Source of the DNA: Clonostachys chloroleuca
Lineage: Eukaryota > Ascomycota > Sordariomycetes > Hypocreales > Bionectriaceae
NCBI GenBank assembly: GCA_037952775.1
Contig: JBANAY010000004.1
Location: 6,820,001 to 6,884,000 of the forward strand
Reading direction: 5' to 3'
Length of the DNA stretch: 64,000 nucleotides
Position numbers and translations under genes: made by a program
The notes under the pieces: model-generated
The model's input: only the letters and a program-made list of their open reading frames with translations
The model's database searches: none
What the model was told of the DNA's origin: nothing
Shown here: piece by piece, positions 16,201 through 59,036 of the stretch
How the letters are laid out: each line of letters opens with the position of its first letter
Numbering within the stretch: the first letter of the stretch is position 1

Positions 16201-16689
16201 ATCAGAGTATAGCTGGAATCCTATAACTAGTTTATTAGGTAATCTCCTAAACGCTTTAACCTTTATATTATTTAGCTAGTATTATAAAGCTAGGAGTATA
16301 TCTACTTATTTAATATTAGGTTCTTCCAGTATATAGTACTATATTACTATCTTAACTATTTAGTTTTTCCTTTTAGAAATTCTATCTATTTACAGATAGT
16401 ATACAGTTAATATCAGTAACTTTATTCTAATAAGATAAAATATCTCTCTCTATATTTTTAATATAAACTTCGGATCTCTATTACTAAGAATATACTTAGG
16501 ATAACCCTAATCCGTAAGAAAGAGTTCTCTAATCAGGATTATTACCTACTCTGTAGCTATATATAATATATATCCTGTAAGAAGTATAGTTTTCTTTAAG
16601 AATATATTATTTATAGGGGCTAAAGTATTTAATTTTATAAATCCTTCTATAGCCTAGTAAGTTCCTACTAAGGGAATCTCAGGCAGATC

Positions 16690-16860
16690 TATAATAAAGT
16701 CTAGTATAATTATATAAAATAGCTAAGGGTAGGCCTGGCTCAGCCTTAACTCTCCTATAGGCATACTTCTAGCTACTCCTGCTTTACAGTAAGTCAGGCA
16801 GTAATAAATATACTACTAGACTTTTCTTATAAGTAATCAGATTTAATATCCTTTAAGCTT
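16690..16860 (-). pseudogene. Broken gypsy integrase segment
   Basis: Reverse-complement reading shows an integrase-like HHCC-to-core transition with residues such as SRSMPIGELR followed by a segment where relatives have RPWQDISMDFI. Several stop codons interrupt it. It lies downstream of the reverse transcriptase on the same strand, the normal Ty3/gypsy order. Confidence 0.55.
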
Positions 16861-18179: not shown

Positions 18180-18480
18180 AATTTTCTTCTAGGATCCAGA
18201 GTACTTCTTCTATATACTAAAGATACTCTTTAGCTGAATCTAAGAATACTATAATATTATTAATATAGGCTTATATAAAATACCTATATTTCTATAGGAT
18301 TCTATCTATAAACCTTTAGCTAAAGCTCAGTAAGTTCTAAAAGCCTATTAAGACTATATTTAATACCTCTAGGTCTCTCTCAGAGATAACCACTATCTGG
18401 TTATAGTACTCTGAGAAGACAGGCAGCTGGAAGAAGAATTTAACTATATTAAATATACTGAAGAATTTCTTTCCTTTTAT
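18180..18480 (-). pseudogene. Broken gypsy reverse transcriptase core
   Basis: The reverse complement encodes a recognisable RT palm: FFFQLPV, VISERDLEVLN, FRT, then YINN at the YxDD catalytic box, followed by DSAKEYL and EEVLW. The two catalytic aspartates have become asparagine by GAT-to-AAT changes, and TGG codons for Trp or CAG/CAA codons for Gln have become TAG or TAA. This domain order and the DSAEEHL-type motif are typical of fungal Ty3/gypsy elements. Confidence 0.75.
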
Positions 18481-21400
18481 ATTTAAGATTATATTATTCT
18501 AGTCTAGTAATAGGTATATATCTAGTATAACTTTACTATTAAGTAGCTATAGATTAATTACTATATAGCCCTTCTTCTTACCTTCTACTATATACTATAC
18601 TATAAATACTAGGTATATAATCTGGGCTAGTTAATCCATTAGACTTATTTTCCCTTCTACTACCAGCTTATTATATATTTTATCTAGGAACTAGCAGTTA
18701 TTATAATCTAATAGGTAGGGACAGACTATTTTTCTTTAATCTTACTATCTATCTATAAAGTCTACTCTTATTTTTATCTCTTTAGGTATTAGGATTATAC
18801 CTCTATTATAGTAGATATTATACCTATCTAATAGTTTAATAAAAGACTTAGCTAGCGTTTTATTAAGGTTAGCTATATATATACTATACTTATTTTTTCT
18901 TACTAGGATATCTAATATCCTTAATATCCTGTAATTTAGCAGACTATTATTAATACTAGGAATTTCCAGTTCCTTACTTTCTTTAGTCTACTCTATATTC
19001 TTTTCTATAAAGTTAAAATACTTATCTATACTATTAAAGCTTATACTAGATAGTATAATCTAGCTAGCTTCTTTTAGAGTTAGGAATATTACTTACTTAT
19101 TTCCTATATATTCCTTAATTTTACCTACAGTTTAGTTCTTTATAAGAATTAGAGGTCTTTCTATATTATTACTAAATATAACTAGCTATATACTATTTAT
19201 ATCTATTATAGTATTAAATACAGACTTATAGTTTAATATAAAATAGTATACTTTTACTTTAATTTCTAATAGTAAGGAGCTCTATTTTACTATAATTAGT
19301 ACTTTCTTACCTAATTATAGCTTAGTATTCTGCTATACTTAGATATTATAAACTACTTTCCTCAGTCTTAGCCGGAATATACTACCTTATATCTTTATAC
19401 TATATACTAATCTGAAGACTATACTTAGGTTAATAAAATCTATTCTTATACTATAGTTATATAGAAAGCAAGTCCCTAGTAGTAATTTTAAGCCCAGTCC
19501 TATTATAATATTAGCAGTAACTATAAAGTAGGTATATACTTCTACTCCTACTATAATACCGGGTATATAGAAGTTAAATATTACTGCTTCTGAGATAGAG
19601 AAGTTCGAGTTAACTCTGGTTACTTACTTTAAAGATTAGCTATAATAGTATATATTCCTACTGTACTTCTTGAGCTATCCCTTATTAACTAAGATAGTTA
19701 AGATACTAGTATTAATATATATTTTATAGGAGTTACCTTTATTATTAAACTTTAAAGGGATCTTAAGGTATATATATACTTTTTTCTCTAATTCTTCGGA
19801 TATATCCGGATATAGGCTGGCCTTAATTATCTACCCTAGCTATAGTATAATTTATATATAGGCTTATTCCTTAAGTAATATCAGAGGTTCAGCTTATTTC
19901 TAGATATAGGCTACTATCTCCTAGTAGTCTATAAAACTTAATATTTCCTCTTCTAAGGCTTCTTTATCTTCCTCCTTAGAGAATTCTTTAATAAAGGTAT
20001 AGCCTTTATCCTTTAGCTCTCTTTCTTTATTATTAAAGTCAGAGTTATTAACCCTAAGTTAAGCTTTACTCTTAAATTAGCTACCTTCTTATAATCTATA
20101 TTATCAGTATATAAATCGCTTCTGCTGGAATCTTAGTTTTCTTCCGAAAGAGACCTTATAGTTTCTTTTTTCTTACTAATCCCTGCTACTATATAGAGGG
20201 GGACTCCAGTTCTTATATTATAAGGACTAATTACAGCCTTAATACTATCTACTATATAGCTAGTATCCCCTATTACTATAACTATCCCTTTAGTTTTAAC
20301 TAGAGAAGTAGCTGTCCTTAGCCTTACTATTAGTCTTAGACTCTCCCTAGGGGAAGTAAGCAGTATTTATATCTGGACCGGTAAGATCTATTATTTTATA
20401 ATACTGTTATAGCCTGGTTGCTTTTAGGAGGTCTGATATATTTTATCTCCTGAGTTCTACTTTATTTAACTAATCAGCCTTTATATTATTTACAGAAGGT
20501 TCTATATATATTACTTTTAACTTTAGATCGAGAGTATTATATACTCTTAGTAGCTACTAGAGTATACTTATTTCTCTATATACAGCTAACTAGCGGAATA
20601 CTTTAGCTATATAATTATATAGCGAGTAATCTTTATATAGGTCTTCCTTAGAGAATATTACTAGTACTAGCTTCTTTAAAGCTTCAGTAGGTTATATACT
20701 GAATTACCTTTTTAGTACTATTTCCTACTACTTAAAAGATAATCTAGCTAATAGTTTCTTAATTATATCTAACTCCTACTACTACTAAGCTAATACTTTT
20801 CCTCGAAATAGCTACTATAGGTTTATCCTAATATATTCAGCTCTCTCCTAGCTACCTAATATTATAATATCCTTTACTATATTCAGCTATATAGAGATAT
20901 TAGTAAACCCGAGCTAAGGTCTATCAGTAAAGACTTTATTATTACTAGTTATTTCCTTACTTATATCTAGCTAGAAGATACTAATATTAGTTAATTTCTA
21001 CTTAGGTATATATACCTCTTACGGGGTTTTAATTATTTCTTACTAGTTTAAGATTAGTTTTAACTATTTTTAGTTCTACTCTAGCTAGATAACTCTTACT
21101 TAATTATACCCTAGTATATTAAATATATTCCAGGCGGGGTTATTCTACTCTGTAGATATAGTATCCTTTAACTATACCGAGTTTATACTAACCCCTAGTA
21201 CTACTAGGATAGCTCCTCCTGCACCCGAATTAGCAGTCTGAGGGATAGCAGCTGTAGTTCCTTTTCTTCAATCATCCTGGATCTGCTCAGCCTTAGCCTA
21301 ACTATAACCAGCCTCACTGTCCTTAGATTAAGTTAGGTTATCCAACTATACAGATATTAGTTTTTCTGGCTGAGCTAGGTTACCCCCAGAGGTAGATACT

Positions 21401-22467
21401 GCTAGTATAGTTTAGTTACTGTTTAATATAGTTAATTAAATAAGTATCTGCTTAAGTAAGATAATAGTTATTACTCTTATCTCTATAAGGATATTCGAAT
21501 TCCTCTAGAGGCCCTTAGTTATTTTATTTATCAGAATAGTATAATTATTTCTAACTTCCTCTATAACTATCCCTAGGTTAGCTATTCTTAGGGTAAACTT
21601 TAGCCCTGGGAAGAGTAGTTCCTTACCCTTCCCTAGTAGTAGGTCTTCAGATATTATTAGAACAGAGTATTAGGTTAGGGTATCTCTTCTCTATATTATT
21701 CCTATTAAGTCCGAACTCTTATTAGAGCTAACTATAAGATTTAGGGAGAGAGATCCTTATTCCTATATTCAGCTGTTACTTAGTAATAACTTAGAACTAT
21801 CTAGTCTTTCTCTTCCTAGTATATATATCTGGAAATACCTAGGAATAGGTTCTACTAGTAGGGGCTGCCCTTATAATTATATAAAATATTCCGGGCCCAG
21901 CTATATCTCGACTGGAGTCCTCCGCCTTTATACAGTTAAGGATATAATAGGAGTATTTTCAGGGTCTTTATTTATACCTACTTTAGTTTATTCCCTTAAG
22001 ATCTTATCTTCTACTAATTCTACTCTTAAGTCTTCAGAATATAGTGAAGTTAGTCTGCTTACTAGTATAATTCCTAGTCCCTAGGCTTTTAAAATAATAT
22101 ATTTTACAGAGTTCTAGATAGCTCTAACTGTATATTAATTAATTAAGTTCTAATAGATTAGAGCTTTAATATTCCGCTCTTTTAGCAGCTGAAAAAATAG
22201 ATATTCAGAGTTAATTTATTTAATAAAAGTCTTAATTAATCAGGCTATAGCTATTATTTATAATAACCTGCCTTGCAGTACGAAGTTCAGATTATTTTCA
22301 AGGAAGTCAGAAACTCAGTATATATATTCAATATTAGATATACTGAGGTAATTATTTCTCGAACTAGCTCTAGCCAGTATTTAGCCAGGATTTTTCTTTT
22401 ATTATCCTCTCTTGGGCTGCTGAATTGAGTATTTGAGGTCTTGCAATAACAGAGAATTACTACTACC

Positions 22468-22696
22468 TGTTATACTTAAAACTGGCTGTAACCAGCCTGG
22501 GCGTTATTGATAGGTTCTGGATTATTAGCTACAGGGTAGCCGGGTTATAACGGGTTGTGGTTGAAGCCTATGATCACGATACCTTCACTTGTATACAAGA
22601 TAATATAATTCTTAAGGCTTATCTTCTCTTCTATCTGTTAGCTGTTTCCAGCCCTTTTATAGGGGGCTCCGTACAGCCCCTGTTTATAGCATAATA
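22468..22696 (-). repeat. Gypsy LTR (5' end of the element on the coding strand)
   Basis: 229 bp, less mutated than its partner at 12984-13212. Immediately inside lies GGTAGTAGTAATTCTCTG on the coding strand, the expected place for the tRNA primer-binding site; the matching tRNA was not identified. Confidence 0.9.
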
Positions 22697-23595
22697 TTAA
22701 TCTTATAAAAACTCTAGTAATAGAAGATATTTATATAGTATAGCTAGATATATAAATACTCTAGCTATAGCTATAGTCTCTAAGGCGAGAAGCTTATTAT
22801 TTAATAATAATAATTATCTTTTCTTTCTAATTTAAAGCTTATTATAATTAATTAATTAATTATATTCTTACTATTAATTACTTAATTAATTAATTACTAG
22901 ATATTTTAAATAGTTATAATATCTAATATAAATATTCTAATCTCTTAGAATCTAATTAATATTTTTAATAAAACTCTTAAAATAATAATAATAGTTATTT
23001 AAGATAATCTAATATAACTATTTATTAAATATATTTATAATATATCTTTTTAATTAATTAAAAGTTTATTTATAATAATAAAGCTACTTTTAATATTATA
23101 AATCTAGTAATTATATCTACTTAATCTATTACTTTATATAGTTTACTATCTATAACTATTATTATAGGAATTTATAGAGATTTAAAATAAATTTAAATAA
23201 ATATTATATCTTAAGAATAACTACTTTTTTATATAGATCTACTATAGTTTAATATATAATTTATAGTTTTAGTATATTATATACTATATTAAGATAATTA
23301 GAATAGAAATAGTTTTTAAAAATTAATTATTTAAACTTTATATTTATTTTTAATTAAATTAGATTAAATTATTATTTATATTAGATTAGAGTATATTAGA
23401 GTTTATTTTAATTTAATTTAAAATTATATATATTTAGAAATAAGAAAAGTTAATTATTTAAAGTTATTAGTTATTTTATCTTTATAAATATAGTATATAT
23501 TTATAGCTATAGAATATTTTTATTAGAAATAATATAGATTTAATATTAATCTAATATTTATTTATATATAATTAGTTATACTATATAATACTAGT
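22697..23595 (-). repeat. Right piece of the older repeat split by the gypsy element
   Basis: Matches the reverse complement of about 26045-25150 along its whole length, with blocks such as TATAGCTATAGAATATTTTT and ATTAGTTATTTTATCT shared. Together with 12897-12983 it reconstitutes a repeat of about 1 kb. No protein can be read. It may be an LTR of another retroelement. Confidence 0.7.
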
Positions 23596-24264
23596 ACTAT
23601 ATATAATATATTAAATTATAATAATTATTAAGTACTAGAGGAATATTTATATAATTCTCTATAAGTATATTAAAGATTAGGAATATTTATATATCTTCTT
23701 ATTAGCTAGCTACTAGATAGAGTAATAGCTTTAGTAAGTATAACTACTAGATCTATATAAGAGAGAGTAGTTTTATTATTATAAGTAAATCTATAATAGA
23801 TTATATATTTAAATAATTAATATTTAAAAAGAGATCCTAATAGTTTTTTCTTATTAATAATAACTATTATAAGTATAAGAATCTATTTACTTATAATAAC
23901 TAGGCTCTAGCTATAGAGAATAATAATATTAGAGATATCTATTATTATTATAAGGAAAGATAGTTAATAGTTAGTAATTAGGAATTAGTAATAATAAGCT
24001 TAGAGAGATATTATAATTAATTATAAATAATAAGTATTCCCTCTTTAGGCTTATAGCTAAGTTATATACTTAGTTAGCTCTTTTTAGAGTTTTTAGAGAT
24101 ACTATTATCTTATCTTAGTTTAGCTAAATAAAAAAGAAAAAAAAATAGAGTTAAAGATTAGATATAGACTAAAGCTTAGTTAAAAATAAATTATATAGAT
24201 CTAGTTATATATAGCCTGATCTTAGAATATTCTTTATATATAATAAAAACCCTTTAAAAAAATA
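23596..24264. repeat. AT-rich block related to the 1-kb repeat
   Basis: Shows weaker direct-orientation similarity to about 25550-26170 (for example GTTTTATTATTATAAGTAAATC against GCTTTATTATTATAAGTAGATC, and a shared GCCTGATCTTAGAATAT-like segment). It is likely a more diverged member of the same family. No genes. Confidence 0.4.
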
Positions 24265-24500
24265 TAATAGTTAGATTAATTTATATTAAATAGGATTTAT
24301 AGTAGATTAGAATTAAACTAATTAGAGAGTTATTCTGAGTAGTATAATTAGATTATTATAAACTATATAATAGGAGTTACTATTAATATATAAGTATTAT
24401 AGAGCTAGTTTTAATAGATATATAGATAATTATATTAAATAACTATCTAAAGGAGTATTATACTATAGAAATAAATATATATATATACTAATATATTTAC
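24265..24500 (-). repeat. Copy 4 of the dispersed AT-rich repeat, inverted
   Basis: Reverse complement of the 301-545 repeat, including AGTATTATAGAGCTAG and GAGTTATTCTGAGTAGTATA. Just beyond it, TTAAAGTAAAGTTATT resembles the sequence beside the partial copy at 6145, which could mark a shared element end. Confidence 0.55.
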
Positions 24501-24904
24501 TAAGGCTTTACTTTCTCTTTACTTAGGCTTTACTTATTTAAAGTAAAGTTATTCCTATTAGTTATTAAGATAGATTAGTAATATCTATTTAATATATAAC
24601 TTTCTATAGCCTGGAAATAGTCTTTATTTATAATATTAATAAATTATTCTATATAATAAATAATATTATTTATTATAGTTTAACTAAATATAAGAGAATT
24701 ACTTATTTTATTTTTATATTAGAAGTTTATAGTATAATTATTAGTATTAATATTATATATATAATTTTAACTATCTTTTAGATAATTACTAACTAATTAT
24801 CTTTTCTCTTTATTCTACTAATTATTTATACTAATTTATATCCTTTATATAAATACTTAATTAAATTTAGAACTATAAAGAAGAAAAAACTAATAATTAA
24901 TATT

Positions 24905-25132
24905 TATTATACTTAAAACTAGCTATAACCAGCTTAGTACTATAGATATATTATTTATACTTAGCTATAGGGTAGCCGGGTTCTAATAGGTTATAGTTAA
25001 AACCTAGGTTTATAATACCTTTACTTATATATAAGGTAGTATAATTCTAAAGGCTTAAATTCTCTTCTATCTATTAGCTATTTCTAACCCTTTTATAGAG
25101 AGCTCTATATAGCCCCTGTTTATAATATAATA
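24905..25132 (-). repeat. Solo LTR of the same gypsy family
   Basis: 228 bp aligned end to end with the LTRs at 12984 and 22468. It is flanked by a perfect 5-bp target duplication ATATT (24900-24904 and 25133-25137), with no internal region beside it. The start has become TATTATAC from TGTTATAC. A solo LTR arises by recombination between the two LTRs of an inserted element. More RIP damage than the LTRs of the complete element. Confidence 0.85.
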
Positions 25133-25149
25133 ATATTATAATATTATAT

Positions 25150-26125
25150 TAGTTATTATTATATAGTATAACTAATTATATATAAATAGATATTAAGTTA
25201 ATATTAAATCTATATTATTTCTAATAAAAATATTCTATAGCTATAAATATATACTATACTTATAGAGATAAAATAACTAATAACCTTATATAAATAGCTT
25301 TTCTTATTCCTAAATATATATAATTTTAAATTAAACTAAAACTAATTCTAATATACTCCAGCCTAATATAAATAATACCCTAATCTAAATATAAATAAAA
25401 AAAATATAAAATTTAAATAATTAATTTTTAAAAGCTATCTTTATTTTAATTATCTTAATATAGTATATAATATACTAAAACTATAAGTTATATATTAAGC
25501 TATAATAGATTTATATAAGAGAATAACTATTCTTAAGATATAGTATTTACTTAAGCTTATCTTAATTCTCTATAAGTTCTTATAGTAGTAGTTATAGATA
25601 GTAGGCTATATAAAGTAATAGACTAAGTAAATATAGCTACTGGATCTATAATACTAAGAGTAGCTTTATTATTATAAGTAGATCTTTAACTAATTAGAGG
25701 GATATATTATAACTATATTTAGTAAATAGCTATATTAGATTATCTTAGATAATTATTATTATTATTTTAAAAGTTTTATTAGAAATATTAATTAAATTCT
25801 AAGAGATTAGAATATTTATATTAAATATTATAGCTATTTAAGATATCTAGTAATTAATTAATTAAGTAATTAATAGTAAGATATAATTAATTAATTAATT
25901 ATAATAAGCTTTAAATTAGAAAGGAAATATAGTTATTATTATTAGATAATAAGCTTCCCCCTTTAGGAGCTATAGCTATAGCTAGATTATTTATATATCT
26001 AGCTATATAAATACCTTCTATTATTAGAGTTTTTATAAGATTAATACCTATACCTAGGCTAAAAGTATAATATTTTAACTTTATCTTATAGTATTAAAGG
26101 TTTAGATATAAACTACTAATTATAT
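25150..26125 (+). repeat. Uninterrupted inverted copy of the 1-kb repeat (empty site)
   Basis: Its reverse complement matches 12897-12983 followed directly by 22697-23595, with one TTAAT where the gypsy element sits in the other copy. It therefore preserves the pre-insertion arrangement. Differences are transitions. No coding content is readable. Confidence 0.7.
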
Positions 26126-27777: not shown

Positions 27778-28257
27778 ATGTTACTACAACCACAGATGCC
27801 TGATAGACACATGTATCGGAATAATTTAAGGAGATTCCGGGAGAAGTGATGAAGGAGAAGAAACTTTAGGAGGTCCAAGACATCTCAGCTGGGAAGACAG
27901 AAGTTACTTACGTTTAGAGAGTGAGGAGTAAGTCAATCATTATTGATGAATATTCTGTGTTGATAGTGATTTACTGTCCTCTCATTAGAATTCCTCGTGT
28001 GGTTTTGATGGGTACTCATCGTACGTGATATTGAACTCAATATAATACATTTCTGGTTACAGGTCAGCTAAATATTGTACCTTAGTTTGCGTAGCTATTA
28101 TCTAACTCTGTGTAAACTGTCTTGCTCGCATGAGCAGTCACACCGTAGAAGCTCTGGTTTCTTTCATCAATAGCAAAGAGGACTTGGATTTGGTGTTAGT
28201 ATTTGTCACAATTACCAGAGAATTGCATGAGGTATCATCACCCTGTATATTCCAGGC
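27778..28257. other. Downstream region of the GH51 remnant
   Basis: Near-normal composition, no supported gene. An open frame at 28130-28312 begins MSSHTVEALVSFINSK but matches nothing recognised and is out of frame with the membrane-protein fragment that follows. The two may be pieces of one decayed gene. Confidence 0.35.
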
Positions 28258-28509
28258 TTTGTGCCAAATTTGTTCCGTGAGATTGACCGATGGGCGAATT
28301 GGAATCTCTTAGACCTTTTCACCTTTATCTTTCTTGTCATCGCAAGCTGTGCTTTCCTTGAAGGGCTAATAGCCGTAGTTAGTGTATTGTATTTCTTTGG
28401 GAACACGCTGTTCTGGGCGTTGGCGTTGGGATCTGGATTTGCCTTGATATCGGCCTCGATGTCGTCTTCCTTAAATGTCTTTCGAAAGTTGGAGACTTCG
28501 GCTTTGTGA
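28258..28509 (+). pseudogene. C-terminal fragment of a hypothetical membrane protein
   Basis: An open frame without a proper ATG reads FVPNLFREIDRWANWNLL and then two hydrophobic helices (LFTFIFLVIASCAFLEG and LIAVVSVLYFFGNTLFWALA). The aromatic-rich start and paired helices look like the tail of a fungal multi-pass protein of unknown function. No start codon or convincing upstream exon is seen, because the preceding frame ends in TGA about 30 bp before. It lies between a dead glycosidase and a dead transposon, so it is most likely a relic. Confidence 0.4.
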
Positions 28510-28610
28510 AACTATTCGTAGTTGAGAAAGATTGCAAGATACCTAAACTAACCTAGCAAAAGTTTACAACTACCCCCACCATAACACCACATACCTATTC
28601 CAACCTTCCA

Positions 28611-29820
28611 ATTTAGATTATATATTTTTAGCCTAAAAAGTATCTAATTAGAATAATAAATATATTTCTAGATAGCCTAAAGCTAGTAGATTAATATTTT
28701 ATATACTATCTGTATATATAGATAACTAAATATAATCTATTAGATAGTAACTCTATTAATCTATATATTTAAGGCTGGAGGATATCTTACTATACCTACT
28801 AAATATATTCTATAAAAATTACTCTATTAGCTGTATTATTTTTAAGATAATAAAGTAAGGGATATCTCTTCCTTAATTAATACTTAAGAAGACTCTAAAT
28901 ATTCTCTATTAAGCTTAAATCTAGAGAATAAGAAAGCTACTCTAGTAGCTTAATCCTATATATAGCTAGTTATACTATAGAGCTCTTAGATATATAAATC
29001 CTTATATTATCCTATTAAAATCTTCTGGTTCTATTATATAATAATAGAAGCTCCTTATAGAGAGCTTTTTAATAGCTCTAAACTATATAGCCCTTATAAG
29101 AGGTATTATTATTATAAGTTATTAGTATAAATAGTATTCTTTCTATCTTCTAGATTCCTCTCTAATATATCTAAGAAAGTATAGACTAATTATAATCTAT
29201 TTTATTAATAAGCTCTTTATTATACTTCTTATAAGGGTACTGGAAGAGATATATATTAGGATTATCTAATTTACTCTAAATAGAAACTTTATCCGAGTTA
29301 ATTATCTAAGTATATAAGCTACTATATAAGACCCTTATCTTTAAAGAGTAATATCTTAACTAAATCCTTAATATCCTCTAACTAAGCTTATACCTAATAA
29401 AGCTAGATAACTACTATTTCTATTATTAGCTTCAGTTTTTTTATAGCTTTTTATTTATACTTAAAATAGCTATATATAATATATTAAACTATATTAATAC
29501 TAATATAGCTATCTACCTTAGCTATTAGAGCTCCCTATATAATATTATAATCTTTATATACTATATATATAATATATTACTTCTCTATCTTTATAAGCTT
29601 ATTAGGCTACCCGGATCTTAGCTTATAATCTATAGAGCCTGTTTCCTTAAACTGCTTTTTAAGGGCTAAGACTATAGTATATATAGTCTGGAACTTGCGA
29701 GCAACTGTATATACGGACCTTCCTGTAGCTAGCTGCTCTAATATAGCTCCTTTTGCTTCAGGAGAAAATTAGTAGCCTTAACTATGATTTCCTGATATCT
29801 TGACTCTAAAGCGATATATT
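28611..29820 (-). mobile_element. RIP-degraded Tc1/mariner-type transposon remnant
   Basis: Reading the minus strand from 29770 gives LSPEAKGAI-like and ATGRSVYTVARKFQT (helix-turn-helix at the transposase N-terminus), then GALIAKVDSYISINIV, with the order expected of Tc1-like transposases, interrupted by many TAG/TAA codons. The N-terminal 100 bp are least damaged. Terminal inverted repeats could not be fixed with certainty; the limits given are where composition changes. Confidence 0.55.
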
Positions 29821-30975
29821 TTACTTATAAATTGGCTGTGTTGTGTGTGTTGAAAGAAGGAGGTTGGGTCGCGAACGCGTCGGCGCGAAAAGGCGGTGGG
29901 GTCGGGTGGTCGCAAACTTTTGTACACCCACTGTAATAAGGGGTGTAGTGCTAATAGGGTGTTTGACCTCTCTGGCCGACTGCAACAGTGCGAGTGGCGA
30001 GACTCCTACAGCCAAGAAAGTATTGTTAAAGTTAATCATGAAATAAAGGAACTTCCTTCCAAGAAAGATTTCTTGACTGCTTATACACTCACATCATTAT
30101 CTCATCGCCTGAAAAGCCCTGATAATAGCCAGAAATAAGATGGCTTAGTTCCGCTTTATTGCCTCTTTTACCCTCGATTCCACTAAGCCTTCAAGATCTT
30201 TTGCTTCTCGTTGAGGAGTGTTTGGAACTTCGGCGCTATGTTTGACACATAACGCGCCGTTAAATTCCCTTACGGCCGGTAACACAAAAAGCCCTCTGAA
30301 AAATCACGTAAGATATTGCCTTTGTCGACAATATTGTGTTGGAAGTGTACGTAATAAAAGGTTCCAGACATTGAATTTTATGTCAACTCATCTATACAAT
30401 TTATCAGAGATGAGACATTCTTGTGCTCCAACATCAGATTGTTCGCTTAGTGTTGCCTCTAAGGATGAAAGAACCAGCATAAAATAGTAAATAAAGCTCC
30501 GAATATAGCAATGATGACGGAAAGAAGGAAGTCTCTTGGGGCGGAGGAGTAAGACTGAGCGATGTTATACTGCGACACATGCACTGCAAGGCCAAGATGC
30601 CAGTCTGTTCTTATTACTTCAATGGCCACAACAAATCGGGGAACCTGGGCAGAAGTCCGTTTTCAACTATTTATAGTCTAGTCCATACTGTAGCAATACA
30701 TGGGAACTTGATGGCTAAAGTAAACTAAAATACAGAAGTCTTCTAACACAGTGCAAGTAAGTGAATTCATCGCACGGACAGTACATTCTTCTGTGTAGCA
30801 GGATGCCTCAGCAGAGGTGTGTTCTTTTCTTCAGGGCCTCGACCCTGGCTATATATCCGCCAACGTTATTATTTAAGTATACTTCACATTTTTATGATTC
30901 CGCTAATCACATCTCTGATAGTTCAATACGTTATCACGGCATATATATCATGTCAGGCTGGGACTTGGGTTAAGA
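29821..30975. other. Gene-poor region of normal composition
   Basis: About 1.15 kb with several short overlapping open frames, none resembling a known family and none with consistent splice signals. The frame 30761-30973 ends in the same reading frame as the hypothetical gene that follows, so an upstream exon of that gene could lie here. Confidence 0.4.
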
Positions 30976-36342: not shown

Positions 36343-39300
36343 ATGGATCCGCCTCAAGTCCACATAGACCAATATAGAAGCCCCGACACATCGAATGAGA
36401 CGAAGCGATCCGACCGCGGCAAAACGTTCCGCATACGAGCCGTGCCAATAGCCTGGGATTCGAACCGACTGGCATCCTTCCTACGAGATTCCACCGACGA
36501 TACACACCCAACCGTGCTATCACTAGCTCCCGAAATCCACGGGCGGACACAAACAGCCACTGCCACGTTCTTACGAGTCCCGTCGCTGCCACGAGGCGTA
36601 AAAGCCTGGCGTATTCCATTACCAGCCGGGGATCAACTCCAAAACAAACGACAAAAGTCGATCGAGCTCGATGGCGACTTCCTCGGGGTCACGACCTTGT
36701 ATCACCCCCCACCACACGAGCATCAGACCGAGTGAGTGGCCCAGACCATCACTCAGATATATATACTCACCCGCCCAGTATTGTTGCAATATCCGGTATC
36801 GGTGGACATGCGTTCGGCTCCTTCAAGGAGAGGGGCGGCGATTATATGTGGCTACGAGACGGCCTGGCCGATGACTTGACGACAGCACGGATCATGATTT
36901 ATGGTTACAAATCAACAATCCCAAATAGCAAGAGCATGCAAACTCTAGCAGATCTTGCATTATCATTTTACACTTCGCTTGAGTCGCTCATTGGTGACGA
37001 TGATCCAAAGCCAATTGTTTTCATTGCACATAGTCTAGGCGGTCTAATCGTTAAACAAGTAGGTACAATCAACGCTCTTCTCTACGGGTATCTGATCCAT
37101 TCTCTAGGCCTTGGCAGAATTAGCAAAGTCCGAAAATGACGTCCATATAAAGCTCATCCAAGGAGTGCATGGACTTGTCTTCTTCGGGGTGCCCAACGAC
37201 GGCATGGACATCAAGTCCCTAATTCCTATGGCAGGGGATGGGCCAAACCGGTCACTAATCGAATCCCTCAGCAGCAGCAACTCACAAATGTTGCGTACTC
37301 TACATCAGGAATTCCACGATATCTTGGGTTCGGGGCGGATGATATTATGTTTTTATGAAACAGAGTTATCCCCAACAGCCCAAAAGGCATGGATCCAACT
37401 GAGGAAGAAAAACAGCAGGAAAAATTAGCTAACAGATCTTAGGATGAAAACGGTAAATGGAGTATGAAAGGACCGGAAACGGTACTGGTTACCCAAGCAT
37501 CCGCTATAAACTGTCGCCGCTGGGAAACTGGCTCCGCTTATATATGTCCAATCTCTCGTAATCACTCCGACATGGTCAAGTTTGAAGAAGAGGATGAGGA
37601 GTATGAAAAGGTCCGTGGAAGGATCAGGAATATTGTGAGAAAAGCCAAGATCCATCCACCAGTCTACGATATCAGAAGTATGCAGCAGAGGGTTCTTCGA
37701 TATAAGGCTTCCAGCCGTCTCTAACATTCTCACCGTAGGCCGTGTCATCTATGACAATACATATTCTTCCCACGCACAGTTGGTTGTGAGGACAAACCAA
37801 CTCGCCGACACACAAAATACACTTACACAAGTCCATAACGGAGTCACAGGCGTATCACATACACAAAAGCCGGAAGATGGAAGTCACCAGGAAGTAAAGG
37901 ATGGTACGTCTCTCAACTTTACAGCTTTGCAACCAATTTATTCTCGAGTATTGAGGATTGAGCGGGAACTAAAAACTAATCTCCCAGCCTTTCTTCGCTC
38001 TCTTGGATTCTCTCGCATAGACGACCGATACCATGCCATAGACGCTGCCCACCCTGGCACGTGCGAGTGGCTTTTCGAGACCCCGTCGTTTCAGAAGTGG
38101 CGGAATCGCGATGAATTGGAGCTCAATAACGGAGTCCTGTGGATCAAAGGCAAACCGGGAGCGGGAAAGTCAACCTTGATGAAGCACATCCTACACTGGT
38201 GTGAAAATCCGGATCACTTTAAACCTCAGCTCATCGTCCGATACTTCTTCAATGCACGAGGCGTTTCCGAGGAAAAATCGGTGTTGGGAATGCTACGTTC
38301 GATGTTAATCCAACTACTTACTGAGGACTCCACTATATTCGACAACTTCTTCCAGATGTTCAAACAGCGGGATATGAATAAACAGGACTGGGTTTGGGAA
38401 GTGGCCCCACTGACCAACTTCATTCTTAAACTGGCCAAGAAGAAGGCCAGTAGACCCATGGTCGTTCTCATCGATGCACTGGATGAGTGCGATGAAAGTG
38501 ACGTAAGACTTGTTGTTGACTTTCTTGAAAATCTGAGTTGCCACGCGACCTACTCGGGGTTTGAGCTGAGAATATGCCTGTCAAGTCGCCATTACCCCAA
38601 CATCACCATGAATAAGATGGTTCAGCTAATTGTGGAGACCGATCTGGGACATGAAAATGACATATCGACGTATATCAAAGCAAAGCTCCGAGTCCAAGAT
38701 GACGGGATCCAGGAGAAGGTCCAGAAGAAAGCAGATGGCATTTTTATGTGGACTGTTTTGGTTGTGTCAATCCTCAACAAAGAGTTCGATCAAGGCTGTC
38801 GGGAAATATTAGAAAAGACTTTGGAAGACGTTCCTGGAGACCTAGAGGAAGTCTTTGCTAATCTTCTGTTGGAACACGGGAAGGCTGACCCAGAAGCCGC
38901 ACTCATGTTTCAATGGGTGCTTTTCAGTCAAAAACTATTGAAACCTCAAGAACTATTTCTTGCGACTCAGATGGGGTTATCCCCAGATTCTAATGGAGTA
39001 TGGGATCACTCCAAGTATACTTTGGACTATATCAAACGTCGCATTGTTGCCATTTCGAAGGGACTTATCGAAGTACGAAGTGGCGGTGATAATGACGATT
39101 CGTATGTCCAATTCATCCATTTATCGGTTAAAGATTTTCTTTCTCGGAACAACAGGCTCCAGGCACTGGATCCTACAATTGGACAAGAGCCTGTCCGCCT
39201 CAGCCACCGTCGACTCTGGAGGATCTGCTGGGATTCTATCAACCGGTTTCATGCTCAGAACGCAGATTTCAGCAACGACGACCCTTATTTTGAGTCTCAG

Positions 39301-40485
39301 CTCAGTTCTCCGTTCATTAAGTACGCAGCGAGTTTTCTGTTCGACCATGCCAACTGGGGAATATCAGACCAGCAGAAGGGTTCGGGGGGATGGTTCCAGA
39401 ATCCATTCAAGCCGCGTAACCAAGATGCGAGCAAAGAAGATCTTGAGAAATGGCTGAACGAGCATAAAACATGGTACCAATTATGGCAGCGGAGTCCCAG
39501 GTACCAGTCCGGGCTCAGTTTCCAACTAGATGTATCAGAGGGAATCGTGTACGTCTTCTCTGCTGGTGGATATGTCCGACTGCTAAGAGCACTCTTGAAG
39601 CGAAGGTCTGTTGACGTTCGTGCTCAGAGTGACTACCACGGAACGCCAATACATGCTGCCTCCTATTTCGGCCGCATAGACATTGCACAGACACTGATAG
39701 GTGCAGGTGTTGATGTCAATGCGCAGGGTGGTAGATATGGCACTCCACTACAGGCTGCCTCTACTGGAGGAAACAAAGACTTGGTACAGCTGCTGCTAGA
39801 TGCAGATGCCGATGTCAAGGCGCGAGGTGGTCGATATGGCGGCGCGCTACAGGCTGCTTCTTTCAACGGAAAACGAGACATCGTACAACTCCTGCTACAA
39901 GCAGGCGCTGATCTGAATGCCGTGGGTGACGAATATGGCACTGCACTATACAGCGCCGCCTACTCTGGTCATATAGATACAGCACTACTGCTGCTGGATG
40001 AAGGCGCCGATGTTAACACGCAGGGCGGTAAATTCGGCAACGCATTACAGGCTGCCTCTAGGAAAGGGGCACAAGACATTGCAGAGCTACTGTTAACTGC
40101 AGGTGCTGATGTCAATGCCCAAGGCGGCAAATACAACACTGCCCTGCAAGCTGCATCCATCGACGAGATGGAGATCGTGAAGGTTCTCTTGGATGCAGGC
40201 GCGGATGTCAATGCTCAGGGTGGCCACTATGGAAACGCACTTCAGGCTGCCTGTTATCATAGAGCAGCAGATATTGTGCCACTATTACTGGCTGCAGGCG
40301 CCGATGTCAATGCCAAAGGTACATATGGCACTCCATTGCAGGCTGCCACTCAGTCTGCAGGGGTCTTTGGAGGAGAAATCGTCAAACAGTTGTTGCTGGA
40401 TGCAGGCGCCGTCCAAGACGCCGCGTCTTCTCGTGGAAAAGTTGGCGGAAGGAAAAAGGTTAAGCCTCTAGTATTAAATAAGTAA
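36343..40485 (+). CDS. Fungal NLR: alpha/beta-hydrolase, NACHT, ankyrin repeats
   Basis: Five exons give 1309 aa with frames that match at each junction: 36343-36731, 36779-37058, 37108-37386, 37443-37677, 37739-40485. Introns are 47, 49, 56 and 61 nt. The third has a GC donor (GCATGG...CTTAG). Domains: unassigned N-terminus (1-130), serine-hydrolase/lipase-like domain about 130-330 with AHSLGG and nucleophile S215, NACHT with Walker A GKPGAGKST at 532-540 and Walker B VVLIDALDEC at 636-645, a helical/winged-helix region, then eight ankyrin repeats from about 1028 to 1295 built on YGTALQAAS...DIVQLLLDAGADVNAQGG. Such proteins are cytosolic NOD-like receptors that sense non-self or microbial cues through repeats and signal through the N-terminal effector, here probably an esterase. 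The last exon carries NACHT and repeats without introns. Confidence 0.9.
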
Positions 40486-43371: not shown

Positions 43372-45102
43372 ATGTCCATGCTCCCTCGAGTCACTGCCTT
43401 GGCAGCTCTGCTGTTGCCGCTTTCGGTATCTTCCACGCAAATGGAAACTCGCATTACGGGAGCAGAGACTACTGGATTCTTTCCTGTAAGTTGAACTCGA
43501 TAAACCTCTCTTGTTCTCGACTTAACGTTCAATCTCATCGTCACTTTCCAACTGCCTCTGAACTACCATCTCTAACATGATTACTAGTGCGACGCCCTGA
43601 TCGATGCAGGTCTCGGCAACCGACTTCTGTTGGCGACGCACGACGGGTACGAGCCACGTATAAAGACTTATATGTCTGCCAACGCCCAGTACCGTCCGTG
43701 GTGCTTAGTTCAGCCATACACTGCTCAGGAAGTGTCCCTCACTGTCCGCACTCTCAGCAGCTGCGGTGAGGGCGCTGGTGACTGGCATATCGCTGTTCGC
43801 GGTGGGGGAAACGGCAACCCTGGGAGCAACAACGTAGCCAGCGGCGTTACTATTGACCTAGGAATGATGAACCACTCTTCCTATGATCCCTCGCGGGAGT
43901 TGGCTTCGGTAGAGCCTGGCGCCGCCTGGATGAATGTCTACAGTGACCTCCTCGGGTCTGCCAACGTCACTGTCACGGGCGGTCGCTCAGGGGGCGTTGG
44001 TGTTGGGGGATTCTTGCTCGGCGGCGGGAACTCTCTTTACACGGGCCGCTATGGCTTCGGATGTGACACCGTGATCGGATTTCAGGTGGTTCTCGCCAAC
44101 GGAACCATCGTCGAGGCGAGTGCAGACGCAAACGCTGATCTGTGGAAAGCCCTGAAAGGTGGAGGTATGAACTTTGGCATCGTTACGCGCTTCGACATGG
44201 AGGCCATTCCAGCTACCGACGTAGCATTTGGGCAGTCTGTGTTCTCTGCAAACTACTCGGACCAACTCTTTGATGCCATCTCTGAATTCACAGACCACCC
44301 TCAAGAGCTGGCAGCGGATACAATGTACACACTCTTTAGTCACATCCCGGCTTCACCAGAGGATATGACTGCCATGGTTATTCGCGCCAACACAAAGGGC
44401 AATCTTAATACAACGGCCTTCGACAAGATCACGCAGATCCCTTCGATTGAGAGTACCTGGGGTGTTACGTCTCATGCCGCGCTGGCAAAAGATCAACAAC
44501 TTCCTACTGGTTCCCTGTATGTCGCCTCACTTTGTCAATTATATGTATTCCGCGAAACCAAACTTATTTTGGTGCTAACAAATTCTTTCCTTTCTAGAAA
44601 TCTGCAGAAGACTATGACTTTCAGGAACTCTGTTTCCATCATGCGTCAGAGTGCTACACTACACAAGCAGCTCATCTCATCTCTTTCTGAGAGAATAGGG
44701 GCTGAGAATTATACCACTGCTGTCTTCTATCAAAGCATTCCCAAATACTTTTCGGAGATTGGCAGCCAGAAGGGAGGCAATTCTATGGGCCTCGGTCAAC
44801 TTCCAGGAAATGCCATTCTGCTGCAAGCCGGTATTGCAATATACAACGGCGATGAGGCTGCACTAGCCTTTGCCCGAGCAGAGCTCAATTCTATGATGGC
44901 CAAGCTGAAGGACATCGCAGTAGCCGAGGGCGTCTCTAGTGACTGGGTGTACATGAATTACGCTGATACCACTCAAAATCCCTTGGGCGGCACTGGCGAT
45001 GAAAATATCGCATTCTTGAAAGAAGTCGCTCAGCGTTATGATCCCCAGGGGTGGTGGCAACGGAGGGTGCCTGGTGGATTCAAGGTCACCAGGGCGACAT
45101 GA
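43372..45102 (+). CDS. Secreted berberine-bridge-like FAD oxidase 1 (flavin-linking His replaced by Asn)
   Basis: Three exons, 515 aa: 43372-43485, 43588-44516, 44598-45102; introns of 102 nt (branch TCTAACATGA) and 81 nt (branch GCTAAC). MSMLPRVTALAALLLPLSVS is a signal peptide. The FAD_binding_4 (PCMH) fold shows VRGGGN, VTIDLGMMN, ASVEPGAAW, VGVGGFLLGGG, and GCDTVIGFQVVLANG. The position that normally holds the 8-alpha-histidyl FAD ligand in RxGGH is Asn113, so covalent attachment through that residue is lost. The C-terminus ends DPQGWWQRRVPGGFKV, resembling the BBE domain (family usually has FQ/LVPGGFK). Such enzymes oxidise alcohols, sugars or alkaloid-type substrates with O2. The second intron has no stop, so the frame runs through it. 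Confidence 0.87.
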
Positions 45103-53786: not shown

Positions 53787-56282
53787 CTATGCCACTTGAG
53801 CGACCAATGCTTCAAATTCTCCATCTGTGTGTTCCTTGAGATTTCGGAATTCCTTGTTCAAGACTGTCTCGCCATTCCGGAATCGCTGCACGGTCAATTT
53901 CTGGCCCGATAACCGCTTCGCCTCGAAAAGGTCTTCCACATCCACCAGAGATGGTACCACCGTCGTCCGAAACTCGTACGGCACTCCACTATTCTTGATG
54001 AGTTCGATGCTGGTCTCGAGAACTTTTGGTTTCACCTTGCGACCGGTGACCTTTTTGTAGTTCTCCAAAGCGCATTTAATGTCCATCGCCACAAAATTCA
54101 CAAGATTCTCGTCAAAGGCCCGCTTCAACACAGTAGGTGAGGTTCCATTGGAGTCTAGCTTGACGCTGACTCCAGCTTGTCTGAGGATTCGCAAGAAAGG
54201 AAGCAGGCCTTTGTGGATTGTTGGCTCACCACCAGAGATAACCAGTGATTTGTGAGAGGTGGACGTGATGTGGCGGAACGCGTCGAGAATTGTCACATCT
54301 TCGCGCTCTCCCTCAACCAGCGGGCCATTGTGGCACCAGGGACAAGCTAGGTTACAACGTGATGCGAATAGAATCGAGGCCTGCAATTTCCCGGGATAAT
54401 CACCAAGAGTGTTCTTGATATATCCCGCCAAGGGAAGGTTGGTTATACCGGCTACCTGGCTCTCTAATTCTTCATACTTATTGTCAACCTTATCAGTGCT
54501 TAAGTACTGTAGGCCCGTCTTGTAATTGTACGTCTTGCGTTCTGCAAACTCTGTCGCCTTGCCCCTGTTCCAGTCTCGAGTAGGCCGGAAATAGCCAACG
54601 ATGCGGGAGTACACCAGGGCAGGCTCACCACAATCCGAGCACTGCGGTTGTTCACCTGTCCGATAGCCATGTGTTGGGCAAATACTGAATGTAGGTGTCA
54701 GGGTAACATAAGGCAGACGGAAACGGCTTGTCAGGGATTTCACTAAATCACGCGCCAGCTTCCAGCTTGACAGTTGTTCTCCCAGAAAAGTATGGAAGAC
54801 GGTACCTCCCGTATACGAGCACTGGAGGTCTTCTTGATGGGCCATTGCCTCAAATATATCCTCGGTCGCACCGACGGGAAGCATGGTCGAATTGGTGTAA
54901 AATGTAGGTATATCACGGTTTGGAAACAGCTCCTTGTCCCGCTTGGCGAACTTGTAACACGTGCTTTCTGCTGGACTGGCTTCCAGGTTGTAGAGATTGC
55001 CTGTTTCTCCTTGGAACTCTTGTAGTTTATCTTTGATGGATTCCAATACTTGGAGAGCAAAGTCCTTTTCTTCGCCGATTCCCTTGCCAAACAGGGCAAT
55101 CAGTGCCTCGTTCATCCCATTCACTCCGATTGTGCTGAAATGGTTTGTCCAGTACGATCCTGTCCGCTGCTTAGTTGCTGCAAGATAATGTGCAGCATAA
55201 GGATATAGAGCTGAATTTGTTTCCACAAGCTTTCGTTTGATCTCTAACGAATCCTTGGCGACTCTCAACGTCTCTGAGAGCTCAAAAATGAAGGTATCTT
55301 TTGACCCATTTGATCGATAAGCAAGATTAGGGAGATTGACCGTGACGACCCCAATCGAACCAGTCAGCGGGCTTGCTCCATATTGACCGCCAACACGGCA
55401 ATGAAGTTTGCTGAGATCGAGTCGCAGGCGACAACACATGGAGCGAAAGTCTTCAGGGTCAAGATCGCTGTTGACAAAATTGGCAAAATATGGGACGCCA
55501 TACTTGGCAGTCATCTCCCATATGGACTTCCAACGAGACGACTCCCAGTCAATTCCATCGGAGATATTGTAAGTCGGGATGGGAAAGGAGAAGATGTTGC
55601 CATTGCCGTCGCCCTGCATCATCACTTCCGCAAACGCCTTGTTCATCATGTCCATCTCTACTTGAAAATCACTGTAAATCCATTCCGGATGAAACTTCCC
55701 ACCAATGATGACAGCTTGATCACCCAGCCGCTTCGGGCAGATGAGATCCAGCGACAGGTTTGTGAATGGAGCCTGGAATCCGCTTCGTGTGGGGACATTC
55801 AGAGAGTAAACAAAGCTTTGTATATATTTGAAAACTTCGAAGTAGGATAGATCATCACTCCGGATGAAGGGTGCCAAATACGTATCAAAGCTAGACAGGG
55901 CCTGCGCTCCGGCAAGCTCACCTTGCAGGGTGAAGAGGAAATTGACAACTTGATTGAGAGCAGTGTTGAGGTGATTGGCAGGCCGACATTGGATCTTGTT
56001 TTCGACACCGCCAAAGCCCTGGAAAAGAATATCCTCAAGGCTCCAGCCAGAGCAGTAGGCGCTCAAGAATCCAAGGTCATGGATATGAAAGCGATTGTTG
56101 CCATCATACTGCCGGATCTCCTCAGTGTATACTTTTTCCAGCCAGTACTGGGAGATGATTTGGTTGGAAACATATTGCATTAAACCTTGATGCGAGTAGG
56201 TCGAGTTTGCGTTTTCAGCCGTCTTCCATGTTCCTTTGGCAAGATACTCATCGACGAGATTGATGTTGGAAGGCATTATCAA
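53787..56282 (-). CDS. nrdD-nrdG: Class III anaerobic ribonucleotide reductase fused to its radical-SAM activase (NrdD-NrdG)
   Basis: One intron-free frame of 831 aa. Residues 1-about 590 are NrdD without the usual N-terminal ATP-cone. Visible are HIHDLGFLSAYC with Cys77 (thiyl-radical Cys region), GNIFSFPIPTYNI, MCCRLR (C283-C284), GASPLTGSIGVVTVNLP (N316), a zinc-site segment CPTHG...CSDCG (C535, H538, C548, C551), and the glycyl-radical site RIVGYFRP with G563. Residues about 610-831 are NrdG: CNLACPWC gives the CX3CX2C cluster motif (C643, C647, C650), then ISGGEPTIH, LDSNGTSP and VAMDIKC, all typical of the activase. The pair reduces ribonucleoside triphosphates to deoxy forms without O2; the radical is destroyed by oxygen. 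In bacteria these are separate proteins from adjacent genes. Fusion in a fungus suggests horizontal acquisition. Flanking genes have fungal introns. Confidence 0.92.
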   Translation of the reverse strand: MIMPSNINLVDEYLAKGTWKTAENANSTYSHQGLMQYVSNQIISQYWLEKVYTEEIRQYDGNNRFHIHDLGFLSAYCSGWSLEDILFQGFGGVENKIQCRPANHLNTALNQVVNFLFTLQGELAGAQALSSFDTYLAPFIRSDDLSYFEVFKYIQSFVYSLNVPTRSGFQAPFTNLSLDLICPKRLGDQAVIIGGKFHPEWIYSDFQVEMDMMNKAFAEVMMQGDGNGNIFSFPIPTYNISDGIDWESSRWKSIWEMTAKYGVPYFANFVNSDLDPEDFRSMCCRLRLDLSKLHCRVGGQYGASPLTGSIGVVTVNLPNLAYRSNGSKDTFIFELSETLRVAKDSLEIKRKLVETNSALYPYAAHYLAATKQRTGSYWTNHFSTIGVNGMNEALIALFGKGIGEEKDFALQVLESIKDKLQEFQGETGNLYNLEASPAESTCYKFAKRDKELFPNRDIPTFYTNSTMLPVGATEDIFEAMAHQEDLQCSYTGGTVFHTFLGEQLSSWKLARDLVKSLTSRFRLPYVTLTPTFSICPTHGYRTGEQPQCSDCGEPALVYSRIVGYFRPTRDWNRGKATEFAERKTYNYKTGLQYLSTDKVDNKYEELESQVAGITNLPLAGYIKNTLGDYPGKLQASILFASRCNLACPWCHNGPLVEGEREDVTILDAFRHITSTSHKSLVISGGEPTIHKGLLPFLRILRQAGVSVKLDSNGTSPTVLKRAFDENLVNFVAMDIKCALENYKKVTGRKVKPKVLETSIELIKNSGVPYEFRTTVVPSLVDVEDLFEAKRLSGQKLTVQRFRNGETVLNKEFRNLKEHTDGEFEALVAQVA

Positions 56283-57430: not shown

Positions 57431-59036
57431 ATGGCATTGTATTCTGCTCTCGTCGTGGTAATACTACAGGCTACGAGCGCTCTCGCATCGACATGTGTAT
57501 GATTTTTCGAAATTGCCACTCAACGATGATGAAAAGCTGACATTAAAAAACAGTGCAGCCAGCTTCAACAACAACTCGGTGATAGCCTCAGTTTTCCCAA
57601 TGATACGACATACAACGCTACGGTGTCTAGCTTTTGGTCGATACAAGAGTCTGGGCTGCGACCAGCCTGTGTGATGCGGCCTGCCACCGTCCTGGAGGTT
57701 TCCAAGGCGTTGGAAGTTCTCAGCGGCAGTTTCGAATGCGAGTTTGCCATCAAGGGAAGAGGTCATGCTCCAGCACCAGGATTTGCTAACGTGAAAGGTG
57801 GGGTTGTGATTGACTTGACGACCTTGTCTGCTGTGTCCCTCAACCAGGACTCATCAGTGGCAAGTGTCGGCGCTGGTGCAAAATGGCTCGATGTCTACCA
57901 GCACCTCGATGGGTCCGGAGTGCAGGTGGCAGGTGGCAGGAATGGCAATGTTGGCGCTGGTGGACTATTGCTGGGCGGAGGAATATCGCATTTCACTACT
58001 AAGGTTGGCTGGGGTTGTGATAACGTGGTCAACTATGAGGTTGTACTAGCTAATGGAACGATCATCAACGCGGATAAGACTAACCACCCAGACATGTTCC
58101 TCGCGTTGAAAGGAGGAGGCAACAATCTCGGTGTCGTCACTCGATTCGATCTTGAGACGTTCCCACAAGGCGATATATCCACGACGACCATCACGTACAA
58201 CATATCTCAAAGGGCTGAAGTCTTTGAAGCATTCACCAAGCTAATTGAGTCGCCCAATTACGATCCATTGGCGTCGCTAATTACCAGTCTTCTCTATCGT
58301 TCAGCAACCAAAACATGGACACTGAGTTCCTCTGCAGTCTATACTGAGCCAGTGACCCAGCCCGCGTTTTATGCCGATCTCTTTGCGATTCCGCATGAGA
58401 CTCTGGTTAACAATATAACGTCCTTGGCAGAGTATGCAGATGAGAAAGATGCATTTTCTTTGTAAGTTTTGTTACTCCCAACTGGAGACAAGCTCTTACA
58501 GACGCAGTAATTGGCATTTTGCGACTATAACCCTGAAGCCATCTGCCGAAAACATGCAGAAGATGTTCGATACTCTGAATAATACGATCTACTCTTTCAG
58601 TCCAGAAGGTGGCGTGACTTGGAGCATCGCTCTCGAGCCTTTGGTGGCAGCGATGCTACCAAAATCGGGGGATAGAGATACACTTGGTTTAGAGCGTGCT
58701 TGTCCTGGCTTTAGTATGTATATATTCCATGAAGGCCATCGTCAAGAATGCTCTAACCATCCGCTAGTTGTCCTGATCTCCGCCCTGTGGCCAAATTCGA
58801 CTGCCAACTCCGAGGTTGAAGCTAAAGCTCGATTCGTTTTGTCGGCATGGGAGGCCGATGCGCAGTCAAAAGGGCTTTTACAAGATTTCCAATATCTCAA
58901 TTACGCTGCTCCGCATCAAAAGCCACTGCACTCGTATGGCAAAGATGAGCTTGACTTCTTAGAATCGACCAGCGACAAATATGACCCTGCAAGGATTCTC
59001 CAAAAGAACGTAGGAGGCTTCAAGCTCCAAAACTAA
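57431..59036 (+). CDS. Secreted berberine-bridge-like FAD oxidase 2
   Basis: Three exons: 57431-57496, 57554-58461 and 58508 (or 58502)-59036, giving 500 or 502 aa. The second intron uses GTAAGT and one of two nearby AG acceptors; the 46-nt version is favoured because 40 nt is short for a fungal intron. MALYSALVVVILQATSALA is a signal peptide. PCMH-fold motifs are KGRGH (His93, the expected 8-alpha-histidyl FAD ligand), VVIDLTTLS, ASVGAGAKW, VGAGGLLLGGG and GCDNVVNYEVVLANG; C-terminal VGGFKL. N-terminal LSFPNDTTYNATVSSFWS is typical of fungal members. It oxidises an unknown alcohol or sugar outside the cell or in the secretory pathway. It is a paralogue of the oxidase at 43372 and keeps the His that the other lacks. 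Confidence 0.88.

What the first reader, a model, noticed from the sequence alone, without database searches (positions are those of the whole stretch)
53787..56282. Anaerobic ribonucleotide reductase fused to its activase in a fungal genome
A single intron-free gene joins NrdD (glycyl radical G563, zinc-site cysteines, MCCRLR, VNLP) to NrdG (CX3CX2C at 643-650). In bacteria the two are normally separate, and fungi normally rely on the oxygen-dependent class I enzyme. The fusion guarantees one activase per reductase and would allow dNTP synthesis without O2. Neighbours on both sides carry fungal introns, arguing against contamination. The missing ATP-cone implies that dATP feedback at that site is absent. 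Horizontal transfer and the physiological role are inference.
Basis: partly seen in the sequence, partly recalled or inferred. Interest (0 to 1): 0.9.

Follow-up and report, generated by a model that had tools for sequence, protein, structure and literature searches.

The report
Oxygen-free DNA-precursor enzyme, borrowed between fungi
One intron-free gene of a Clonostachys fungus joins an oxygen-independent ribonucleotide reductase to the enzyme predicted to switch it on, which would let the fungus make DNA precursors without oxygen; the fusion is already known from other fungi, but this copy likely came from a Fusarium-like fungus.

Summary
The anatomy is confirmed. An 829-residue ORF (53787-56276, minus strand, ATG at 56276) joins a complete class III ribonucleotide reductase (NrdD) to a radical-SAM activase (NrdG); catalytic residues are intact and no ATP-cone was found. 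It lies inside a 59.4 Mb, 4-contig Clonostachys genome beside an intron-bearing gene, so contamination is very unlikely. The novelty claim fails: Lundin et al. 2010 (PMC3019208) described fused NrdDG in fungi and Phytophthora and inferred a bacterial donor. My trees of each half agree: the fused rows form one clan (SH-aLRT 99 and 100). None of 80 related prokaryotic loci is convincingly fused; 75 have nrdG downstream, so stop-codon loss in a tandem operon could make the fusion. New here: both halves of the Clonostachys gene nest among Fusarium (100/99, 98/93), whereas the control gene TSR1 places Clonostachys outside Nectriaceae and rejects that grouping (p-AU 2e-7). This points to fungus-to-fungus transfer, probably from a fusarioid relative; hidden paralogy is not excluded. 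MCCR plus Glu432, and no pyruvate formate-lyase found in the genome, suggest a thioredoxin-type reductant, with formate possible. Enzyme activity and anoxic growth are untested.

The parts
53787..56276 (-). nrdDG fusion gene, 829 aa, ATG at 56276, stop 53787-53789
54528..56216 (-). NrdD (class III ribonucleotide reductase) half, residues 21-583
56052..56054 (-). C75, active-site cysteine aligned with the conserved NrdD reductive cysteine
   Evidence: C in 121 of 121 rows of A1; role from PMC4493059 passages
55428..55439 (-). finger-loop motif M280-C281-C282-R283
   Evidence: double-cysteine MCCR class of PMC9669993 section 9
54981..54983 (-). E432, aligned with T. maritima E495, the proposed proton-donor glutamate
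   Evidence: alignment; E in 121 of 121 rows; PMC9669993 passage naming residue 495
54630..54680 (-). presumed zinc-site residues C533, H536, C546, C549
   Evidence: metal binding inferred
54594..54596 (-). G561, glycyl-radical residue in RIVGYF
   Evidence: radical formation predicted
54444..54521 (-). linker, residues 586-611, with 587-597 under pLDDT 50
   Evidence: AlphaFold2 model
53790..54443 (-). NrdG (radical-SAM activase) half, residues 612-829
54333..54356 (-). C641-C645-C648, CX3CX2C predicted to hold the [4Fe-4S] cluster

Best explanation
The gene encodes an 829-residue fusion of a class III ribonucleotide reductase (NrdD) and a radical-SAM activase (NrdG); the activase half is predicted to place a radical on glycine 561 so that the reductase half would make dNTPs without oxygen, and the gene likely reached Clonostachys from a Fusarium-like fungus. 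Predicted mechanism: the [4Fe-4S] cluster at C641/C645/C648 is reduced by a host flavoprotein, SAM is cleaved, G561 becomes a radical, and C282 (or C281) in the finger loop becomes the thiyl that starts reduction. C75 with the second finger-loop cysteine would form a disulfide that thioredoxin re-reduces, E432 giving the proton; because M280 is also present, formate could serve instead. With no ATP-cone, overall dATP shut-off through that domain would be absent. Origin: a prokaryotic nrdD-nrdG tandem operon was fused, probably once and by loss of the nrdD stop, then moved among fungi and oomycetes. Shown: domains, residues, single fused clan in both half trees, conflict between gene trees. Inferred: all chemistry, the electron donors, how the fusion arose, the direction of transfer, and a role in anoxic growth.
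For: Domains and residues. Folds of both halves. Chromosomal placement: (G000:C4, with class I genes on the same contig at 0.7 and 13.2 Mb); left neighbour with introns; GC3 0.55 against 0.49-0.56 for three neighbouring coding stretches. Genus: TSR1 98% identical to Clonostachys rhizophaga, NrdDG 95% to C. solani. Single fusion: the 61 rows kept from P0001-P0072 form one clan in the NrdD tree (SH-aLRT 99; 58 of the 61 keep the radical-SAM cysteines), and 32 of 32 fused rows do in the NrdG tree (100). Tandem operon: by motif search 75 of 80 prokaryotic loci have nrdG downstream, in 26 the nrdG open segment starts within 9 bases of the nrdD stop in the same frame. Fungus-to-fungus transfer: Clonostachys placed among Fusarium (full length 100/99; NrdD half 100/99, NrdG half 98/93 for core Fusarium plus Clonostachys); Fusarium held apart rejected (p-AU 0.0002, 0.004, 0.002), Nectriaceae held apart rejected (p-AU 2e-11); TSR1 places Clonostachys outside Nectriaceae and rejects Clonostachys with core Fusarium (p-AU 2e-7) or with all Fusarium (p-AU 9e-6). 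Reductant: MCCR plus Glu, no PFL-like and no Gly_radical match in the genome, and a phage NrdD with the same MCCR/Glu pattern that ends in a CPNC redoxin-like stretch (judged by eye).
Against: No expression, activity or growth data. The species-tree control is one gene, and its Nectriaceae node is only 84/79. AU groups are taxonomic but were chosen after a first tree was seen. Clonostachys is sister to core Fusarium, which stays one clade without it (98/94), so it is nested only in Fusarium in the broad sense. Duplication before the split with differential loss could mimic transfer. Xylariaceae sp., Apiospora, Grosmannia and a Pleurotus record also sit in odd places, so mislabelled or contaminated records cannot be excluded for each. 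M280 leaves formate open.
Confidence: 0.72

Rival explanations
1. Hidden paralogy: the ancestor of Bionectriaceae and Nectriaceae had two nrdDG copies, and differential loss left Clonostachys with the copy that core Fusarium kept. No transfer into Clonostachys occurred.
For: Presence looks patchy, so losses may be common; both halves give the same nesting, as whole-gene paralogy would.
Against: The Clonostachys genome has one NrdD match. The other fusarioid rows branch outside Clonostachys plus core Fusarium, so a series of reciprocal losses would be needed.
Confidence: 0.2
2. Bacterial contamination or a very recent bacterial insertion.
For: Prokaryotic-type gene without introns.
Against: The 25 best hits are fusions at 75-95% identity, all fungal where named, against 53-57% for the unfused, presumed prokaryotic hits P0073-P0121; it lies in a multi-megabase contig with class I RNR genes; the left neighbour has introns.
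Confidence: 0.01
3. Decaying passenger: the gene was acquired but makes no dNTPs in the fungus.
For: Class I RNR is present and would suffice in air; no expression data.
Against: Open frame of 829 codons, catalytic residues kept, 95% identity to C. solani.
Confidence: 0.12
4. Strictly formate-dependent enzyme of E. coli type.
For: M280 of the finger loop is present, the residue linked to formate use (PMC9669993).
Against: MCCR double cysteine and E432 mark the thioredoxin-capable type; no PFL-like match in the genome.
Confidence: 0.2

Closest known systems
Eukaryotic NrdDG of Fusarium, Gibberella, Nectria, Schizosaccharomyces japonicus and Phytophthora (Lundin et al. 2010, PMC3019208, passages read)
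   Same: Same NrdD-NrdG fusion; Fusarium and Phytophthora fusions fall in the same clan in my trees.
   Different: Genus not among those named in the passages (Clonostachys); here with tree and AU evidence that its copy derives from a fusarioid lineage.
Thermotoga maritima and Neisseria bacilliformis class III RNR (PMC4493059, passages and sections 7, 10, 11; N. bacilliformis through PMC4493059 and PMC9669993)
   Same: Double-cysteine finger loop and active-site Glu.
   Different: MCCR instead of SCCR, fused activase; 21-22% identity in the structural match to T. maritima.
Prevotella copri and Streptococcus thermophilus class III RNR (8p2s, 9d3x)
   Different: In those chains the match begins at residue 92 and 130, so they have an N-terminal part that is missing here; no ATP-cone was found here.
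NrdG2 / pyruvate formate-lyase activating enzyme
   Same: CX3CX2C and radical-SAM fold.
   Different: Fused to its presumed substrate enzyme.
Trepomonas sp. PC1 NrdD-NrdG (PMC4967989, passages)
   Same: Also a eukaryotic NrdD-NrdG fusion.
   Different: Authors infer a bacterial origin with weak affinity to Clostridium, distinct from that of Spironucleus RNR; its relation to the fungal fusion was not tested by me.

Membership tests
Class III ribonucleotide reductase (NrdD) | Complete NRDD domain | tested here: met
   562 of 562 model positions; TIGR02487 and PRK08270 above cut-off
Class III ribonucleotide reductase (NrdD) | Glycyl-radical motif, finger-loop cysteine, reductive cysteine | tested here: met
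   G561, C282/C281, C75
Class III ribonucleotide reductase (NrdD) | Forms a glycyl radical and reduces NTPs without oxygen | not testable with these tools
   needs EPR and activity assay
NrdG activase | CX3CX2C radical-SAM domain of NrdG type | tested here: met
Eukaryotic NrdDG clan (Lundin 2010) | Single ORF, NrdD and NrdG fused | tested here: met
Eukaryotic NrdDG clan (Lundin 2010) | Groups with fungal and oomycete fusions apart from prokaryotes | tested here: met
   SH-aLRT 99 (NrdD) and 100 (NrdG)
NrdD2 subclass (thioredoxin-using; definition from PMC4493059 and PMC9669993) | Third cysteine and active-site glutamate | tested here: met
   C281 and E432
NrdD2 subclass (thioredoxin-using; definition from PMC4493059 and PMC9669993) | Uses thioredoxin as reductant | not testable with these tools
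   M280 keeps formate possible

The most novel reading that the evidence does not exclude
NrdDG is a portable anaerobiosis gene that jumps between fungi: the Clonostachys copy was taken from a fusarioid fungus, possibly one that it parasitises, and gives it DNA synthesis in anoxic tissue or soil with thioredoxin as reductant.
Probability: 0.45. Interest if true: 0.6.

Novelty: new member of a known kind. Interest (0 to 1): 0.4.

Why it matters
Class I ribonucleotide reductase, the usual eukaryotic enzyme, needs oxygen to build its radical (PMC3019208), so how fungi make DNA without oxygen is a testable question. The fusion itself is known, but evidence that one fungus gained it from another makes it a candidate for a gene that lets aerobic moulds enter anoxic niches, and a deletion in a laboratory Clonostachys strain would test it.

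Tried and rejected
Bacterial contamination: rejected. A bacterial ready-made fusion as donor: not found; of 80 GTDB loci the only single-frame case, Anaeromyxobacter L054, lacks the glycyl motif in that frame and carries unrelated Pro/Arg-rich sequence there, so it looks like a frameshift, not a fusion. Four of the 80 showed no nrdG by my pattern. A viral donor: of the 15 plus 1 IMG/VR loci 7 were kept in the NrdD tree and fall on the prokaryote side; in L003, where I read the surroundings, nrdG is a separate ORF. Exact bacterial donor: unresolved in both trees. Formate supply by PFL: no match. My first TSR1 test of core Fusarium plus Clonostachys (p-AU 2e-22) left out a Fusarium row that lies inside that core, which inflated it; redone with that row included or free it is 2e-7 or 1e-5. 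Holding all Nectriaceae plus Clonostachys together in TSR1 is also weakly rejected (p-AU 0.035). I saw no report of the Clonostachys transfer in the listings (top rows only, open-licence library). Searches list the best 120 hits only. Rows dropped: one search kept 149 of 214 (gappy or near-identical rows out), one search kept 130 of 142, one search used 46 of 72 rows P0001-P0072, one search used 26 named rows, one search used 19; searches used 33 of 120 listed TSR1 hits plus the genome's own. The fold search tested mainly residues 3-586; families not listed are not excluded.

Full report

Where it lies. The window is G000:C4:6820001-6884000 of a 59.4 Mb genome in 4 contigs, with one NrdD match in the whole genome. 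Class I large and small RNR subunits are on the same contig at 0.71 and 13.19 Mb. No PFL-like and no Gly_radical match was found; 16 flavodoxin-like matches exist and could include the activase's electron donor (inference). The genome's TSR1 is 98% identical to Clonostachys rhizophaga and its NrdDG 95% to C. solani, so the organism is most likely a Clonostachys (Bionectriaceae). The left neighbour, a PDR-type ABC transporter, has two candidate GTAAGT introns of 51 and 69 bp.

Relatives. None of P0002-P0072 lists an ATP-cone, whereas 42 of the 49 unfused, presumed prokaryotic hits P0073-P0121 list PF03477. Key residues were counted in 121 rows: C75 and E432 in 121 of 121; of the first 66 rows C281 and C282 in 65, G561 in 64, C641/C645/C648 in 62, the misses being gaps.

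Prior knowledge. Lundin et al. 2010 (PMC3019208; [quoted passage not shown] they saw the fusion in two fungal genera only. A discussion passage of PMC8520639 counts the S. japonicus enzyme among its anaerobic adaptations, though it calls it class I. Rumen fungi have the NRDD domain (PMC6712302, one passage), and Trepomonas has a fused NrdD-NrdG of bacterial origin (PMC4967989, passages).

One fusion. In the NrdD-half tree of 149 rows the 61 rows kept from P0001-P0072 are one side of a branch (SH-aLRT 99); 58 of them keep the radical-SAM cysteines. In the NrdG-half tree of 130 rows all 32 fused rows are one side (SH-aLRT 100). The S. japonicus reductase-only protein lies inside that clan, so it likely lost its activase half. 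A GTDB scan kept the best 80 of 591 loci. By pattern search 75 of 80 have nrdG downstream of nrdD, 26 of them with the nrdG open segment within 9 bases of the nrdD stop in the same frame; 4 showed none and 1 appeared fused. That one (L054) lacks the glycyl motif in its frame, so 0 of 80 is a convincing fusion. Loss of one stop codon in such an operon would be enough to make the fusion; that this happened is inference. The donor group is not resolved.

Fungus-to-fungus transfer. In a careful full-length tree of 46 rows the two Clonostachys rows sit in a set with five Fusarium rows and one unnamed row (100/99), inside further sets that hold more Fusarium and also Xylariales rows (97/91, 100/98, 100/99). 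Holding the nine Fusarium rows apart from Clonostachys costs 72 log units (p-AU 0.0002), and holding 15 Nectriaceae apart costs 88 (p-AU 2e-11), Xylariales (and, in the second test, Grosmannia) left free; the five core Fusarium rows stay a clade without Clonostachys (98/94). Each half alone joins Clonostachys with core Fusarium (NrdD 100/99, NrdG 98/93) and rejects Fusarium alone (p-AU 0.004 and 0.002). TSR1, with overlapping species, puts Clonostachys with other Hypocreales and all 19 Nectriaceae rows on one side (84/79) and rejects Clonostachys with all Fusarium (p-AU 9e-6) and with core Fusarium (p-AU 2e-7, which replaces an inflated first test). The groups are taxonomic but were chosen after the first trees were seen. 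The nesting favours fusarioid to Clonostachys; hidden paralogy is the main rival. That Clonostachys species parasitise other fungi, including Fusarium, is recalled and comes from no call.

Mechanism. The finger-loop motif is MCCR and E432 aligns with T. maritima E495. Burnim et al. (PMC9669993 section 9) say that double-cysteine enzymes with the methionine appear to hold the essential parts for formate or thioredoxin. Mutating either cysteine of the T. maritima SCCR reduced activity to background (PMC4493059 section 10). A phage relative with MCCR and Glu ends in a CPNC redoxin-like stretch (by eye). With no PFL match in this genome I favour thioredoxin. Activation in cis or across the dimer cannot be told from these data. 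A role in anoxic DNA synthesis follows from established class III chemistry and is untested.

Verdict.

Noticed in passing
P0067, P0068, P0069, P0071, P0072 (protein hits; alignment): Fused NrdDG proteins of unknown source carry an intein-like insert (PF14890 listed for three of the five) exactly between the two cysteines of the MCCR finger loop, the radical site.
   Followed up: partly
L003:8671-11037: A phage NrdD ends in a redoxin-like CPNC stretch (by eye); its nrdG is a separate ORF at 7947-8648. Suggests a built-in protein reductant.
   Followed up: partly
window 8001-26000: About 18 kb of very AT-rich DNA (13-35% GC per kb) with composite RIP indices up to 1.58, as left by repeat-induced point mutation; weaker signs at 1-2000 and 28001-30000.
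   Followed up: partly
P0055, Schizosaccharomyces japonicus: Reductase-only protein nested inside the fused clan, so the activase half was likely lost secondarily.
   Followed up: partly
P0024 Pleurotus ostreatoroseus; P0012 Xylariaceae sp.; P0016 Apiospora; P0025 Grosmannia: Non-hypocrealean records nested among Nectriaceae: further transfers or contaminated assemblies.
   Followed up: no
window 37639-40482: NPHP3/NACHT-type NTPase with ankyrin repeats.
   Followed up: no
window 43588-45099 and 57533-58462: Two FAD_binding_4 oxidase ORFs in one window.
   Followed up: no
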